From Yersinia massiliensis CCUG 53443 (lineage in GTDB: Bacteria > Pseudomonadota > Gammaproteobacteria > Enterobacterales > Enterobacteriaceae), in the NCBI RefSeq assembly GCF_000312485.1, contig NZ_HE997644.1, forward strand, positions 248,001 to 312,000: 64,000 nucleotides of DNA. Direction: 5' to 3'. Below, in pieces: positions 33,985-51,945 of this stretch (position 1 is its first letter; every line of letters starts with the position of its first letter). The position numbers were made by a program, and so were the translations under genes. The notes beneath the pieces are model-generated. The model did no database searches. It was given only the letters and a program-made list of their open reading frames with translations, and was not told where the DNA came from.

Positions 33985-34025
33985 TTTAGGTAACGCAATA
34001 TCGTAACCAATGAGAAACTGAAAAA

Positions 34026-34109
34026 ATGTTCTATTCAACCCGTCTACTAGGCCTACTACTCAACGCAACTCACTTGCGCGGTATGTTGGTGGACGGAAAT
34101 CAGAACTGA
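34026..34109 (+). CDS. leuL: leu operon leader peptide
   Basis: 27-codon leader reading MFYSTRLLGLLLNATHLRGM then LVDGNQN and TGA. Codons 7-12 are CTA CTA GGC CTA CTA CTC: five leucines in six codons, four of them the rare CTA. Ribosome pausing here when charged tRNA-Leu is scarce would favour the antiterminator. The E. coli LeuL (28 aa) has the same LLLLN core. Too short for ordinary gene calling, but position, codon content and the following attenuator support it. Confidence 0.93.
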   Translation: MFYSTRLLGLLLNATHLRGMLVDGNQN

Positions 34110-34131
34110 TTCAGTCATCAAGATTAACAAG

Positions 34132-34158
34132 CCCGCGCAAATGCGCGGGTTTTTTTTT
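34132..34158 (+). terminator. leu attenuator
   Basis: CCCGCGC (34132-34138), loop AAAT, GCGCGGG (34143-34149), then nine T (34150-34158). It lies between leuL and leuA and is the transcription attenuator of the operon. Confidence 0.95.
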
Positions 34159-43730: not shown

Positions 43731-43815
43731 AAAAAAAGCCAGCGGGCGACTAAACCTGCTGGCTGGTGAACAACACCATTACTCAGAAATTTTGGAACTC
43801 AGTATCACAGCAAGA
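43731..43815 (-). ncRNA. sgrS: SgrS-like small RNA, 3' part (5' end not determined)
   Basis: Hfq-dependent RNA that pairs with ptsG mRNA during glucose-phosphate stress. On the minus strand the region reads CTGAGTAATGGTGTTGTTCA then CCAGCCAGCAGG, a loop, CGCTGGC and seven T. E. coli SgrS ends with CTGAGTATTGGTGTAAAATC, ACC, then CCAGCAGG and T8. The shared parts are the seed CTGAGTA (43786-43780), the TGGTG/CACCA hairpin (43778-43764) and the terminator GCCAGC/GCTGGC (43763-43738) plus T run. It lies directly upstream of setA as expected. No SgrT frame is visible in the 140 bp back to the preceding stop codon. The start may lie as far up as 43868 or inside that gene. Confidence 0.75.
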
Positions 43816-43868
43816 TTCATTTCACTGCACAGTCAACACTTAACACGTTCAATCTCTAACATCAGGGA

Positions 43869-46305: not shown

Positions 46306-47206
46306 TCATCCTCTTAACATTGCGGTCAGGCCCTTGTCACGGGCATAACTTTCCGCGAAGGCCAACAAATCAGGTGCATCCAAAGGGGTACTTGCGGCCA
46401 GATAGGTTTCACCCAGCAACGAATATTTACTGATACCCAGTGTGTGATAAGGCAAAAAATGAATCTCTTTCACACCAATCTCATCAGCGGCAAAATCGAC
46501 GATCCCTTTCACCGAACGACGATCAGCATTGAAATCAGGGATTAACGGCACTCGCACGGTGATATTGGTGCCCGCGGCGGCTAAATGGCGGAAATTCGCC
46601 ATAACCCGTTTGGCAGATCCCCCCCGTCCACTGATGGAAACGGCGCTCATCGGTGTGTTTTAAATCTGCCAGCATCAAATCAAGCCACGGCAATGATGGT
46701 GCGATGTAACGCCATGGCGTGTGTAAGCAAGATTCAACTGCCGTATGAATGCCCAGTTGATGGCAACGTTGCAATATTTCAGCGGCAGTCTCAGGCTGCA
46801 TAAAAGGTTCGCCACCGGATAAGGTCACTCCACCACCGCTGCGCCGATAAAATGGCAAATCGCGCAGTAAAGTCTCCATCGTGGCATCCATATCAATGGG
46901 GCGACCACATACCGTCAGTGCGCCACTGGGGCAGCGAAGGGTGAGCGTCTGAATATCCTCTTCGACCAATAACTGGCGCTGGATAACGAGCTGGTCATCC
47001 ATTCGTTGGATCGCTTGCGGGCAACTTTGCTGACACAAATCGCAACCGGAGAGACAAAGACGTGGGTCATATAACACATCAGGTTTTGCTGATCGGCTCT
47101 CCGGATTTTGGCACCAACGACAACTGAGCGAACAGCCTTTAAGGAACACCACGCTACGAATGCCAGGACCGTCATGGGTGGAATAACGTTGTAGATTAAA
47201 AATCAT
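46306..47206 (-). pseudogene. pflE: Glycyl-radical enzyme activase (PflE/YbiY type), frameshifted in a G7 run
   Basis: Radical-SAM activase that would install the glycyl radical on the downstream enzyme. The start at 47206 follows GGAGGGA. The N-terminal part has CSLSCRWC (the CxxxCxxC cluster site) and a ferredoxin-type [13 protein letters not shown] insert. It runs to FHQWTGG, where a run of seven G (C at 46619-46625 on the plus strand) shifts the frame. The rest, [15 protein letters not shown] to TAMLRG, continues one frame over and aligns with E. coli YbiY to its end. Removing one G restores about 300 residues. No other defect is seen. It could be a real inactivation, a slippage switch, or a sequencing error. 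Confidence 0.88.
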
Positions 47207-47330
47207 ATTATCCCTCCACTTAGTGTGACTTCTTAGACGTTGCAGTGATAACCCACTTTTCATGCACACCAGTATCTGCGTAATATAGGGAAAGAAAAAT
47301 TGATGAATTTTGCCGTGGAGTTCCCCTTTT

Positions 47331-48992
47331 ATGTCTGCCTCACGTCTGCAACAACAGTTTATTCGGCTCTGGCAACGTTTTAATGGCCAGCCAACGGAAA
47401 CCACCTTGCAAGAACTCGCAGACGTACTCAGTTGTTCACGTCGCCATGTCCGATCCTTGCTGAGCAGCATGCAACAAGCGGGTTGGCTGAGTTGGCAAGC
47501 CGAGGCAGGCCGTGGTAAACGCTCACAATTAACGTTTCTCTATTCTGGTTTAGCACTGCAACAACAACGGGCCGAGGAATTACTCGAGCAGGATCATATT
47601 GATCAACTGGTGCAGTTAGTTGGGGATAAAAAAGCCGTACGACAAATGCTGCTATCCCAGTTAGGACGTAGCTTTCGCCAAGGGAAACACATTCTGCGTG
47701 TGCTCTATTACCGCCCACTGCCTAATCTATTACCCGGTACTGCCCTACGACGTTCCGAAACGCATATGGTGCGGCAGATATTTAATGGCCTAACGCGAAT
47801 AAATGAGGAAAACGGGGAACTCGAACCGGATTTATCTCATCACTGGCAAGCCATAAGCCCGTTGCATTGGCGTTTTTATTTGCGGCCCGCCATCCATTTC
47901 CACCACGGACGTGAACTGGAAATGAACGATGTCATCGCCAGTTTGACGCGCTTGATTCCGCAGCCGCTGTTCTCGCACATCACCGCCGTACGCTCCCCCA
48001 CCCCCTATGTCATTGACGTGCATTTGAGCAGCCCAGACCACTGGTTACCTTGGTTATTGGGGTGCGTTCACGCCATGATTTTGCCGCAAGAGTGGGAAAG
48101 CCAGCCGGACTTCCAGCGCCATCCTATCGGCACTGGCCCCTATTCGGTGATGCGTAATCACCACAGTCAGTTGAAAATTCAGGCCTTTGATAACTATTTT
48201 GGTTTTCGCGCACTGATTGATGAAGTGAACATCTGGGTGCTACCGGAACTGTCCGAGGAATTAGTTTACTCTGGCGTGCAGTTGCAAGCTGACGATACCA
48301 GTAAAAATGAGCTGGAAAGCCGCTTGGAAGAAGGCTGCTATTTCTTGCTGTTTGACCAGCGATCGGCGCAAACAAGCCAACCCGAGATCCGCCGCTGGCT
48401 TTGCGAGCTGATCACACCGGTCGCCCTACTCAGCCATGCTGACCCGTTTTATCAGCGTTACTGGTCGCCCGCTTACGGCATGCTACCGCGCTGGCACCAT
48501 AACCGGTTGACCGCACTAGAGCCGAAGCCCGAAGGGTTAACTGAGCTTACGTTGACGTTTTACAGTGAGCATTCTGAATTTGATGCCATCAGCCAAACAC
48601 TGACCACACTGCTGGCCGCGCACGGCGTCAAATTGGTGATTCAGGTGGTCGATTATGTTAGTTGGTATCAAGGTGACGCGAGAAGCGATATGTGGCTTGG
48701 CAGCGCCAACTTCTACCTGCCGCTGGAGTTTTCACTGTTTGCGACCTTGTATGAGTTGCCCCTGCTGCAACATTGCCTCGACGACAAACTGCATCAAGAC
48801 GTGGAATTATGGCGTAACAATGCCCTCCCCATGGTGGATTGGAGCCAACGATTGGTCAGCCAAAATCAATTCCACCCTCTCTTCCATCACTGGCTAGAAT
48901 TATATGGGCAGCACAGCATGCGCGGCGTGCGCATGAACACCCTCGGCTGGTTTGATTTCAAATCCGCATGGTTTACCCCTCCCGAGGCATAA
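47331..48992 (+). CDS. sgrR: Transcriptional regulator SgrR
   Basis: Activator of sgrS and setA during sugar-phosphate accumulation. The 553-residue protein (E. coli 551) has an N-terminal winged helix ([20 protein letters not shown], about 28-47) and a large solute-binding-type domain (SBP_bac_5 family), ending [22 protein letters not shown] 47331 gives the conserved [15 protein letters not shown]; an earlier GTG/ATG adds a non-conserved stretch. It is divergent from the activase gene, not from sgrS as in E. coli, because the glycyl-radical pair lies between them. Upstream of thiBPQ, as in E. coli. Confidence 0.95.
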
Positions 48993-49034
48993 ACACACTT
49001 TCACCCGCCCGAATTAGTCTCTACAATAGCGCCG

Positions 49035-49290
49035 TCTCAACGGGGTGCGGAAAAGCTGCTGTGGTCGTGATCAGAATTTATTCTGCTTCGTTCCATTAAC
49101 GCTGAAACAACAACGTCGCGAGGGAGGTTCAGCCGGAAGCGGACAGCACAGATAAACCGGAACGTACTGCGAGTACGTGAGGATGTCGAGTCCTGCCCAA
49201 CACCGGATCCACCTCATCGCAGCACGTTTTTTTCGCTGAGAGCAAACCCGTCGAACCTGATCCGGTTAAAACCGGCGGAGGGATTTGAGA
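49035..49290 (+). promoter_or_regulatory. TPP riboswitch (THI element) with enlarged P3 arm
   Basis: P1 is TCTCAA (49035-49040) with TTGAGA (49285-49290). Conserved blocks follow in order: GGGGTGC (49042-49048), CTGAGA (49236-49241), ACCCGTCGAACCTGATCCGG (from 49245) and CGGAGGGA. They match the E. coli thiB THI-box. The distance between GGGGTGC and CTGAGA is 187 nt; in E. coli it is about 15. The arm appears to fold as one long hairpin, TGCTG (49057-49061) with CAGCA (49220-49224) and AAAA with the T7 run, so ligand binding may survive. It should lower thiBPQ expression when thiamine pyrophosphate is plentiful. 82 bp precede the thiB start. Confidence 0.9.
49049..49233. mobile_element. About 185-bp palindromic insertion in the riboswitch (YPAL-like candidate)
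   Basis: Sequence not present in the E. coli thiB leader. Its centre is ACGTACT-GCG-AGTACGT, a perfect 7-bp hairpin (49161-49177), and its ends are partly complementary (TGCTG with CAGCA). Inner parts GAGGGAGG and CCACCTC also pair loosely. Size and shape recall the miniature palindromic elements (YPAL family) known from Yersinia, but I cannot compare it with their consensus. No transposase or coding frame. Exact ends and a target duplication could not be fixed. Confidence 0.5.
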
Positions 49291-49372
49291 AAAATAACGC
49301 CGCCTCACTGCGATGCCGATGTTATTCACCGCCTCAGATACCTTTGCCACCTTTATCTTTAAGGAGTGCAAA

Positions 49373-50362
49373 GTGTTTAAACGCATGATTCCCTGCTTGT
49401 TCTTATTTTCTGTTGCCGCTGTTGCTGCCGATAAACCCACCTTGACGGTTTACACTTACGACTCCTTTGCTGCCGACTGGGGACCAGGGCCAGCAATAAA
49501 AAAAGCCTTTGAAGCCGAATGCGATTGCCAGCTTAAATTTGTGGCGCTGGAAGACGGCGTTTCACTGCTAAACCGCCTGCGAATGGAAGGGAAAAACAGC
49601 CAAGCTGATGTGATTTTGGGTTTAGATAACAATTTGGTACAGGCAGCGGAACAAACGGGGTTATTCGCCCCCAGCCAAGTGGATACGAGCGCGCTAACAC
49701 TCCCTGAACCATGGCAAAACAAAACCTTTGTCCCTTTCGACTACGGCTATTTCGCCTTTGTGTATGACAAAAACAAACTGAAAAATCCGCCAAAAAGCCT
49801 GCAAGAATTGGTCAGCAGTGATGCGCCGTGGAAAGTGATTTATCAAGATCCTCGCACCAGTACACCGGGCCTGGGTTTGATGTTGTGGATGCAAAAAGTG
49901 TATGGCGATAAAGCGCCGCAGGCCTGGCAACAACTGGCGAAGAAAACCGTCACTGTCACCAAAGGCTGGAGTGAGGCTTATGGTCTTTTCCTCAAAGGTG
50001 AAGGCGATTTGGTACTGAGCTATACCACCTCACCGGCTTACCATCTGATTGAAGAGAAGAAAGATAATTATGCCGCCGCTGATTTCAGTGAAGGCCACTA
50101 TCTGCAAGTGGAAGTCGCCGGTCAAGTCGCGTCCAGCAAACAGCCAGAACTGGCACAACGCTTTATGAAATTCATCGTTACCCCCGCGTTCCAAGAACAT
50201 ATTCCGACCGGTAACTGGATGTATCCCGTCATCAAGATGGATCTGCCTGTTGGGTTTGAAACGCTAAACGTGCCGCAAAAAGCGTTGCAGTTTGATGCTA
50301 AAGACGTGGCCGATAACCGTGGAAAATGGATTCAGGCATGGCAATCCGCCGTCAGCCGTTAA
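49373..50362 (+). CDS. thiB: Thiamine/TPP ABC transporter, periplasmic binding protein
   Basis: Binds thiamine, thiamine phosphate and TPP in the periplasm for ThiPQ. GTG start at 49373, six bases after AAGGAG, gives 329 residues with a signal peptide (CLFLFSVAAVAA, cleaved near residue 19). Mature part begins DKPTLTVYTYDSFAADWGPG. Blocks DFDYGYFAF-like FVPFDYGYFAFVYDKNKLKN and QDPRTSTPGLGLMLWMQKVY are as in E. coli ThiB (327 aa). An ATG 60 bp upstream overlaps the riboswitch leader and is rejected. Confidence 0.95.
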   Translation: MFKRMIPCLFLFSVAAVAADKPTLTVYTYDSFAADWGPGPAIKKAFEAECDCQLKFVALEDGVSLLNRLRMEGKNSQADVILGLDNNLVQAAEQTGLFAPSQVDTSALTLPEPWQNKTFVPFDYGYFAFVYDKNKLKNPPKSLQELVSSDAPWKVIYQDPRTSTPGLGLMLWMQKVYGDKAPQAWQQLAKKTVTVTKGWSEAYGLFLKGEGDLVLSYTTSPAYHLIEEKKDNYAAADFSEGHYLQVEVAGQVASSKQPELAQRFMKFIVTPAFQEHIPTGNWMYPVIKMDLPVGFETLNVPQKALQFDAKDVADNRGKWIQAWQSAVSR

Positions 50363-51945
50363 TCCCCGCGTGGTTGTGGCCAGGGCTGCTCGCCGCTGCG
50401 CTGATAGTCGGTGTCGCCTTATTGGCGTTCACCGCGATTTGGCGACATGCGCCGGCGGCCGACTGGCGCAGCCTCTGGCATGACAGCTATCTGTGGCATG
50501 TGATTCGCTTTACCTTCTGGCAGGCGTTTCTCTCTGCGTTACTGTCAGTGCTACCCGCCATTTTTCTGGCGCGCGCCCTGTATCGCCGCCGCTTTCCTGG
50601 CCGCCAATTGATGCTGCGTTTATGTGCCATGACGCTGGTGTTACCCGTGCTTGTCGCGCTATTTGGTATTTTGACAGTGTATGGTCGCCAAGGTTGGCTA
50701 GCGGGATTATTTGGCTGGATGGGGGTGGATTACCGTTTCTCCCCCTATGGTTTGCAAGGCATTTTACTGGCGCATATCTTCTTCAATATGCCGCTGGCAA
50801 CACGATTACTGTTGCAGTCATTGGAGAGTATCGCCGTAGAACAGCGGCAATTAGCGGCGCAATTAGGCATGAACGGTTGGCAGCATTTCCGCTGGGTCGA
50901 ATGGCCCTACCTACGCCGCCAGATTCTGCCCACTGCTGCACTGATTTTTATGCTCTGTTTTGCCAGTTTCGCCACCGTGCTATCACTGGGCGGCGGGCCG
51001 CAAGCCACCACTATCGAGCTGGCCATTTATCAGGCGCTGAGTTACGACTACGATCTCGGGCGCGCCGCACTGTTGGCGTTGATTCAACTGGGCTGCTGCT
51101 TGGGGTTAGTGATATTGAGTCAGCGGCTTAATTCCGTACTGGCGGTCGGCAATACCCATGCGCAAGTCTGGCGCAATCAGCAAGATAGCCCTTGGTCGCG
51201 CATCAGCGATACGCTGCTCATAGGTGCCGCCTTGCTATTGATGGTTCCGCCGTTGTTAGCCGTCGTCATTGATGGCAGTAATCAGACGATCCTGACGGTG
51301 TTGCAACAACCGGCACTTTGGCAAGCCTTCTTCACCTCGCTGACGATTGCCATTGGGGCCGGATTGCTGTGTGTGACCCTCACCATGATGCTGTTGTGGA
51401 GTAGCCGTGAGCTAAAGTTACGCCATCAAATGGCTTATGGTCAGGCGCTCGAAGTGAGTGGCATGGTGATTTTGGCGATGCCGGGTATCGTGTTAGCGAC
51501 CGGTTTCTTCTTGCTGCTCAACGACACGGTTGGCTTACCGCAATCCCCTTACGCACTGGTGATCCTCACCAATGCGCTGATGGCGGTGCCCTATGCCTTG
51601 AAAGTGCTGGATAACCCAATGCGGGATCTGGCGGAACGCTACACGCCGCTGTGCTTATCACTGGATATTCGCGGCTGGCATCGGTTGCGCTATATTGAAC
51701 TGAGTGCCCTGAAACGCCCATTGGCGCAAGCACTGGCCTTTGCCTGCGTGCTCTCTATTGGCGACTTTGGCGTGGTGGCATTATTTGGCAATGAACATTT
51801 CCGCACCTTGCCATTTTATCTCTATCAACAGATAGGTTCTTACCGTAGCCACGATGGTGCAGTGACCGCCTTGCTCTTGCTGTTGCTCTGTTTCTTGCTG
51901 TTTACCCTTATTGAACGACTGCCGAGCCGCCATGCTAACGCTTGA
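50338..51945 (+). CDS. thiP: Thiamine/TPP ABC transporter, permease
   Basis: Inner-membrane permease with two fused copies of the binding-protein-dependent transport domain. The 535-residue protein has about twelve membrane segments and two EAA-type loops, near [20 protein letters not shown] and [23 protein letters not shown] 50338 gives [16 protein letters not shown] as in E. coli ThiP (536 aa); it overlaps thiB by 25 bp. Confidence 0.95.

What the first reader, a model, noticed from the sequence alone, without database searches (positions are those of the whole stretch)
49035..49290. TPP riboswitch interrupted in P3 by a palindromic miniature element
All conserved THI-box blocks are present, but GGGGTGC and CTGAGA are 187 nt apart instead of about 15. 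The extra DNA is itself palindromic, and its ends pair (TGCTG with CAGCA; AAAA with T7), so it could extend P3 as one long arm without destroying ligand binding. Alternatively the long hairpin followed by seven T (49227-49233) could act as a terminator inside the aptamer. Either way thiBPQ control would differ from relatives.
Basis: partly seen in the sequence, partly recalled or inferred. Interest (0 to 1): 0.72.

Follow-up and report, generated by a model that had tools for sequence, protein, structure and literature searches.

The report
Swappable arm in a thiamine riboswitch
The vitamin B1 sensor RNA in front of the thiamine-uptake genes of this Yersinia carries a long hairpin arm related to a scattered DNA repeat; the sensor fold is predicted to survive it, and related species appear to have swapped different arms in the same place.

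Summary
A complete TPP aptamer precedes thiBPQ, with 187 nt (49049-49235) between GGGGTGC and CTGAGA; Rfam's TPP model scores it below cut-off. The extra DNA is a long P3 arm, not a broken aptamer: in 26 distinct arm-bearing leaders (five named genera) 97.0% of pair cells are standard pairs and 18 pairs changed on both sides. The core resembles Rfam RF02228 ("sX9") on the opposite strand (below cut-off here, above it in two relatives). That core is dispersed in this genome and other Enterobacterales; in one relative, copies have inverted-repeat ends and equal 3-bp flanks, like MITEs. The insertion is not recent. Of 25 genomes of the genus, 14 have an arm (two types, 7 each) and 11 a short P3. 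Arm types conflict with the thiB-side tree (AU p 6e-6 and 2e-5); three sister genomes carry three different P3 versions, and two distant ones share an identical arm. Likeliest reading: a repeat-derived P3 arm, neutral for TPP binding, exchanged between species by recombination at the conserved aptamer halves. Binding, regulation and the route of exchange are untested.

The parts
49000..49027 (+). sigma-70-type promoter-like site just upstream of the aptamer
   Evidence: 9 of 12 consensus matches; 1 found against 0.4 expected from shuffles, so weak
49035..49040 (+). P1 5' strand (TCTCAA)
   Evidence: sequence; TCTCAA invariant in 26 of 26
49042..49048 (+). conserved GGGGTGC block (P2 and start of P3)
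   Evidence: invariant in 26 of 26 arm-bearing leaders
49049..49235 (+). 187-nt P3 arm (type I), predicted to fold as a long imperfect hairpin closed by GGAAAA and the T7 run, with a side hairpin on its 5' side
49100..49178 (-). core of the arm, matching Rfam RF02228 (sX9) over the full model on the minus strand
   Evidence: 36.7 bits (cut-off 44), E 3.9e-5; orthologous arms in Hafnia alvei 48.0 and Yersinia 44.6 bits
49227..49233 (+). T7 run, 3' strand of the arm's closing stem rather than a terminator tail
   Evidence: pairs with the A-run in the predicted fold; run absent from Rahnella, Ewingella and H. psychrotolerans arms
49236..49284 (+). 3' half of the TPP aptamer (CTGAGA, P2 3' strand, P4/P5)
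   Evidence: RF00059 aligns 49208-49301; helices 1, 10 and 11 never vary in 26 of 26
49285..49290 (+). P1 3' strand (TTGAGA)
   Evidence: sequence; GAGA follows GGGATTT in 25 of 26 arm rows, GAGT in L066
49333..49373 (+). putative expression platform: CTCAGAT (could pair with the P1 3' strand) and CCTTTGC...AAGGAGTGCAAAG hairpin that would hide the thiB ribosome-binding site
   Evidence: motif in 25 of 25 arm-bearing and 35 of 35 arm-less leaders parsed (of 26 and 61 rows); switching itself is inferred
49373..50362 (+). thiB (GTG start after AAGGAG, start inferred), thiamine-binding protein
   Evidence: TIGR01276, E 5.6e-166
50326..51945 (+). thiP, permease
   Evidence: NF006951, 1053.9 bits
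51911..52639 (+). thiQ, ATP-binding subunit
   Evidence: NF008039, E 2.2e-129

Best explanation
This is a thiBPQ TPP riboswitch whose P3 helix is extended by a 187-nt arm. The arm contains a core of the RF02228 (sX9) type of dispersed palindromic element, which once entered the tip of P3 and now extends that helix, leaving the ligand-binding core and the downstream control hairpin as in arm-less relatives. Within Yersinia, and apparently in the Ewingella group, the P3 segment has since been exchanged between species as a module, most simply by homologous recombination anchored in the almost invariant aptamer halves on either side. Shown: aptamer blocks intact, paired arm with compensatory changes, relation to RF02228 and to dispersed copies, conflict between arm tree and thiB-side tree. 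Inferred: TPP binding unchanged, translational switching, recombination as the route, largely neutral effect of the arm.
For: Covariation: 26 distinct leaders, 58 pairs, 97.0% of cells paired, 18 pairs with changes on both sides, 0 of 500 shuffles as high on these measures, slid controls 31-39%. The aptamer fold (P2, P3 base, P4/P5 enforced) equals the free minimum for the window and 13 others and lies within 2.0 kcal/mol in 24 of 26. RF02228. Dispersed copies of the core: 5 places in this genome (thiB included), 25 in G008, 40 scored of 161 candidates in G058; of 18 G058 copies parsed out of 20 fetched, 15 have equal 3-bp flanks, read by eye from the printout. Full-length type II arm: six matches in 25 genomes, one each in six genomes, each at thiB; full-length type I arm: one per genome in six genomes, among at most six candidates scored per genome. 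Exchange: type I and type II arms each form one clade in the arm tree (99/99) but not in the thiB-side tree, AU p 6.1e-6 and 1.8e-5, 9 type changes. G004 and G020 have an identical 166-nt P3 while most flank windows are 72-92% identical (two at 94 and 98). Sisters G023, G017 and G004 have flank windows mostly 88-100% identical (range 82-100) but type I, short and type II P3. Same expression motif.
Against: Single-sequence fold energy is ordinary. RNAalifold on alignment A2 preferred a rival hairpin pairing GCAGC of the arm with GCTGAG of the aptamer, possible in 25-26 of 26 sequences, which would disturb P3. The window itself is below the sX9 cut-off. Paired changes could reflect selection on the DNA palindrome rather than on RNA. 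In a scan of 293 distant pairs among 25 of the 26 arm rows, P3 was at least 96% identical in 5, but so were the shorter promoter (5) and platform (5) segments. The AU groups were defined from the arm sequences after the conflict had been seen. Two of 26 arms (L051, L021) prefer another fold by 5.3 and 3.0 kcal/mol. No expression or binding data.
Confidence: 0.77

Rival explanations
1. The arm changes control: the alternative hairpin between the arm's conserved GCAGC and the aptamer's GCTGAG, or the U-run, makes the riboswitch less sensitive or acts as a terminator, so arm-bearing species regulate thiBPQ differently.
For: Alternative hairpin predicted by RNAalifold on A2, with 25-26 of 26 sequences able to form it; a single P3 nucleotide changes ligand discrimination in the K. 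pneumoniae thiC riboswitch (PMC12632268, passages).
Against: No terminator-like site in a scan limited to loops of 3-8; U-run not conserved in all arms; the P3-paired fold is the free minimum for the window. GCAGC-like sequence also occurs in dispersed members of the element and GCTGAGA is a block of TPP aptamers in general, so their complementarity may be accidental.
Confidence: 0.2
2. Independent insertions: a mobile RF02228-type element repeatedly inserts at the P3 tip of thiB leaders, so shared arms are separate events rather than exchange.
For: The core is a repeat with MITE-like copies; a different repeat, with 61 matching pieces in its genome (many of them halves of one copy), sits in the same P3 of a Citrobacter (L117), so the site can take insertions.
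Against: All 26 arms have the same orientation and the same place in P3; no second full-length arm was seen in the genomes searched (25 genomes; at most six candidates scored per genome); the identity between G004 and G020 includes the part of the arm outside the repeat core.
Confidence: 0.12
3. Single old gain with many losses and plain vertical descent; the conflicts come from poor gene trees.
For: Losses do seem to occur: Rahnella L107 and L111 keep sequence from both ends of the arm with the middle gone, judged by eye against L110.
Against: AU tests reject arm types as clades of the thiB side; three sister genomes carry three P3 versions.
Confidence: 0.08

Closest known systems
TPP riboswitch (Rfam RF00059), extended-P3 forms
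   Same: All aptamer blocks, P1-P5 strands, thiamine transport operon; extended P3 is reported for K. pneumoniae, K. aerogenes and several Serratia, and variable P3 for plants (PMC12632268 and PMC6414600, passages).
   Different: Arm of 133-202 nt (one search count, one base shorter than the 187-nt count) against the 24-nt extension given for K. pneumoniae thiC; related to a dispersed repeat; apparently swapped between species; Rfam scores 12 of the 16 arm-bearing loci submitted below cut-off.
sX9 (Rfam RF02228), annotated as a Xanthomonas sRNA and listed among the 20 most prevalent sRNAs (PMC9029176, passages)
   Same: Core of the arm, on the opposite strand; orthologous arms of Hafnia alvei and Yersinia exceed the cut-off.
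   Different: Here it is part of a cis-regulatory RNA; dispersed copies read here look like MITEs with inverted-repeat ends and, in G058, 3-bp duplications.
Enterobacterial MITE-like repeats (ERIC, YPAL/RU-2, BoxC)
   Same: Short palindromic intergenic repeats in enterobacteria (PMC2267715, PMC2759123, passages).
   Different: RU-2 and RU-3 sequences printed in PMC2759123 are different by eye; identity with BoxC could not be checked, its sequence was not in the passages seen.
BOX element between two T-box riboswitches upstream of pneumococcal trp (PMC3049150, passages)
   Same: A repeat element built into a riboswitch leader that seems to work still.
   Different: There the repeat lies between two riboswitches; here it is inside the aptamer's P3.
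Horizontal regulatory transfer / regulatory switching (introduced in PMC9944727, passages)
   Same: Non-coding segments exchanged independently of flanking genes.
   Different: The exchanged unit here would be one helix of an aptamer, not a whole intergenic region.

Membership tests
TPP riboswitch RF00059 | Conserved sequence blocks of the aptamer (GGGGTGC, CTGAGA, ACCTGAT, GGGA) in order | tested here: met
   invariant or nearly so in 26 of 26, (which blocks define the aptamer is recalled)
TPP riboswitch RF00059 | Covariance-model score over gathering cut-off | tested here: not met
   44.7 against 54.3 bits, 5' half misplaced because of the long P3; 4 of 16 arm-bearing relatives and 4 of 4 without this arm pass
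TPP riboswitch RF00059 | P2, P3, P4 and P5 can form together | tested here: met
   P1 strands present but the 3' one lies outside the folded stretch
TPP riboswitch RF00059 | Binds TPP and regulates the operon | not testable with these tools
   needs probing or reporter assays
sX9 RF02228 | Covariance-model score over gathering cut-off | tested here: inconclusive
   window 36.7 of 44 bits; orthologous arms 48.0 and 44.6 pass, 2 of 16 loci submitted
sX9 RF02228 | Independent sRNA transcribed from the sX9 strand | not testable with these tools
   no RNA data; the thiB leader is transcribed from the other strand
MITE | Dispersed short copies | tested here: met
   (for the core, not for the whole arm); coding capacity was not tested
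MITE | Terminal inverted repeats and target-site duplication | tested here: inconclusive
   met for G058 copies (15 of 18 parsed of 20 fetched); not recognisable by eye at the thiB arm

The most novel reading that the evidence does not exclude
The TPP aptamer is built for module exchange: its two almost invariant halves act as recombination anchors, P3 is a cassette slot that repeat-derived hairpins of different families enter at the tip, and bacteria swap P3 arms between species to retune ligand response while keeping the sensor.
Probability: 0.22. Interest if true: 0.8.

Novelty: new variant of a known kind. Interest (0 to 1): 0.62.

Why it matters
It would show a riboswitch aptamer evolving by swapping one helix between species, and a mobile repeat becoming a structural arm of a metabolite sensor without breaking it. 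It also means that the standard TPP model misses or misplaces a class of thiB riboswitches (12 of 16 below cut-off), and it questions the reading of the prevalent sX9 'sRNA' family, some of whose members look like cores of miniature mobile elements.

Tried and rejected
Terminator inside the aptamer: 0 sites, in a scan limited to loops of 3-8. Copies in phage and plasmid collections: no match at E 1e-5. ERIC, YPAL/RU-2 and RU-3 as the identity of the insert: the printed RU-2 and RU-3 sequences differ by eye; the Citrobacter P3 insert resembles ERIC only by recalled sequence, what was tested is that it is a repeat. BoxC as identity: the passages and listings seen do not give its sequence. GTAG/CGTC REP families: no fitting passage.

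The sequence energy test gave nothing. An alignment-level enforced fold returned an invalid positive energy and was dropped; the per-sequence values of the same call were kept. The tree, from both flanks, had very long branches; I relied on the thiB-side tree. The 87-row tree warns of long end branches for L081, L074 and L080. Strand preference from G-U against A-C cells is weak: 40 against 15, of which 23 G-U cells are one column pair. One script printed nothing, one alignment of two arbitrary ends was useless. L081 has no leader found and L119 was not parsed, so both are outside the P3 length count (one search shows a short P3 for L119). L066 fell out, and 26 of 61 arm-less rows were not parsed.

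Literature: searches showed no report, in the listings returned, of a repeat element or of exchange within a TPP aptamer; the library lacks most subscription papers, including the two tried.

Full report
What is there. The window lies in a 5.05-Mb genome whose closest named relatives at this locus are Yersinia species. The stretch precedes thiB, thiP and thiQ and follows sgrR, all confirmed by family models. The TPP aptamer blocks are present, but GGGGTGC (49042-49048) and CTGAGA (49236-49241) are 187 nt apart. Rfam's TPP model misses it at the gathering threshold and in a permissive search aligns only the 3' part with 44.7 bits, cut-off 54.3. Two other TPP riboswitches of the genome score 75.6 and 65.7 bits, so the model works in this genome.

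The extra DNA is a P3 arm. I collected thiB loci from 80 records by protein search (the best 80 of 153 were kept by the tool). Nineteen of the 80 have a long P3 with the same core: seven Yersinia, Serratia oryzae, Hafnia alvei and H. psychrotolerans, two Ewingella, six Rahnella and one uncultured Enterobacterales. Fifty-eight have a P3 of 7-44 nt (two of these, Rahnella L107 and L111, look like remnants of an arm), one Citrobacter has a different 95-nt insert, one (L119) was not parsed and one (L081) has no leader found (one search counts P3 one base shorter than the 187 used elsewhere). None of 500 shuffles reaches these values, and structures slid by one to three columns give 31-39%. The structure was derived from the same alignment, which favours it over the slid controls, and rows include close relatives. 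Folded singly, the aptamer fold is the free minimum in 14 of 26, the window included, and within 2.0 kcal/mol in 24 of 26. Against this, the energy of the window's own fold is no better than that of shuffled sequence, and RNAalifold on the same alignment with other settings prefers a rival hairpin between the arm's GCAGC and the aptamer's GCTGAG. P1 was not part of the 26 folds; its two strands are present, with GAGT in place of GAGA in L066.

What the arm is made of. The core matches Rfam RF02228, sX9, over its whole length on the minus strand: 36.7 bits, cut-off 44, E 3.9e-5 in 471 bases. Orthologous arms pass the cut-off in Hafnia alvei (48.0) and in Yersinia (44.6), 2 of 16 arm-bearing loci submitted. 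The same core is dispersed: five places in this genome including thiB, 25 in G008, and in G058 all 40 scored of 161 candidates; in E. coli, 5215 of 5426 genomes have a match, none covering 80% of the insert. In G058 the 20 copies fetched are very similar, have inverted-repeat ends and, in 15 of the 18 that could be parsed, equal 3-bp flanks, 14 of them TTA or TAA (read by eye from the printout). Several members in other gammaproteobacteria also sit between inverted repeats, by eye (7 of 229 genomes of the class, this genome among them, had a match, with stricter filters). So the core looks like the heart of miniature mobile elements; a link to IS5-family transposons is recalled, not tested. 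The thiB arm itself shows no recognisable ends or duplication. A full-length type II arm was found in six of 25 genomes, once each, at thiB; a full-length type I arm in six genomes, once each, among at most six candidates scored per genome.

Terminator and control. No terminator-like site is found, but that scan looks only for loops of 3-8 and cannot exclude a long-armed one. The U-run is T5-T7 in the Yersinia, S. oryzae and H. alvei arms and missing from the Rahnella, Ewingella and H. psychrotolerans arms, and in the window it pairs with the A-run of P3. Downstream, a hairpin motif that would hide the thiB ribosome-binding site is present in 25 of 25 arm-bearing and 35 of 35 arm-less leaders parsed, of 26 and 61 rows, and CTCAGAT could pair with the P1 3' strand. 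That this is a translational switch is inference from these motifs.

The arm seems to move as a module. All 25 genomes of the genus that were searched were read: 7 carry arm type I (the window included), 7 type II, 8 a short P3 of 24-26 nt, and 3 a short P3 of 10 or 37 nt. In a tree of the arms the two types are clean clades (99/99). In a tree of the thiB side they are not: 9 changes of type are needed, and AU tests reject type I and type II as clades with p 6.1e-6 and 1.8e-5; the groups were defined from the arms after the conflict had been noticed. G023, G017 and G004 are sisters with flank windows mostly 88-100% identical (range 82-100), yet carry type I, short and type II. G004 and G020 have an identical 166-nt P3 while most of their flank windows are 72-92% identical. 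On the wider tree of 87 rows the arm, in 26 rows, needs 10 changes. A scan of 293 distant pairs among 25 of the 26 arm rows finds five with P3 at least 96% identical; three swaps would explain them, two in Yersinia and one between Ewingella L120 and the uncultured L121. As a caution, the shorter promoter and platform segments also reach 96% in five pairs each, though in the five P3 cases they are only 77-82% and 84-89%. Apart from P3, the aptamer halves are almost invariant in the genus: the 16-nt 5' half differs in its first base in 2 of 25, the 3' half has 11 versions differing at few positions. They are natural anchors for short homologous recombination; this route is inferred.

A second repeat in the same slot. 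In Citrobacter sp. Res13 (L117) a 95-nt insert in P3 has 61 matching pieces in its own genome, many of them halves of one copy; it resembles ERIC by recalled sequence. Rfam's TPP model still scores that leader at 60.8 bits. So P3 has taken at least two different repeats.

Known and new. Extended P3 stems are known in bacteria and plants, and P3 affects ligand discrimination in the K. pneumoniae thiC riboswitch (PMC12632268, PMC6414600; passages). A repeat inside a riboswitch leader is known from the pneumococcal trp operon (PMC3049150, passages), and exchange of intergenic regions from E. coli and pneumococcus (PMC9944727, passages). In the listings of searches I saw no report of a mobile-repeat-derived P3 arm or of exchange of one aptamer helix. 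I therefore call it a new variant of a known kind.

Noticed in passing
window 46306-47470, minus strand: A glycyl-radical-enzyme activase is split over two overlapping frames: one piece matches profile positions 1-196, the other 195-291 of TIGR02494. Looks like a frameshift or a sequencing error next to an open glycyl radical enzyme gene.
   Followed up: partly
window 43731-43850, minus strand: SgrS small RNA match just over the cut-off (37.6 of 37 bits), with much of the model's middle deleted; sgrR starts about 3.5 kb away.
   Followed up: no
window 34012-34156: Leucine operon leader, 108.4 bits.
   Followed up: no
L190 (G000:C1:149896-150321): A dispersed copy of the core between two genes that look like the kdp regulators (names recalled, not tested), flanked by an imperfect direct repeat of about 35 bases.
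   Followed up: no
L155-L174 (G058): One enterobacterial genome of 3.2 Mb gives 161 first-look candidates of the element; 40 were scored, all matching, and 20 read here are very similar, which suggests a recent burst.
   Followed up: partly
L117 downstream of the aptamer: In Citrobacter Res13 a second sequence resembling the same repeat sits just downstream, in the expression platform region.
   Followed up: no
tip of the arm in L017, L021, L024, L026, L051: Five Yersinia arms carry an extra hairpin of about 17 nt at the very tip of the core, absent in otherwise similar arms.
   Followed up: no
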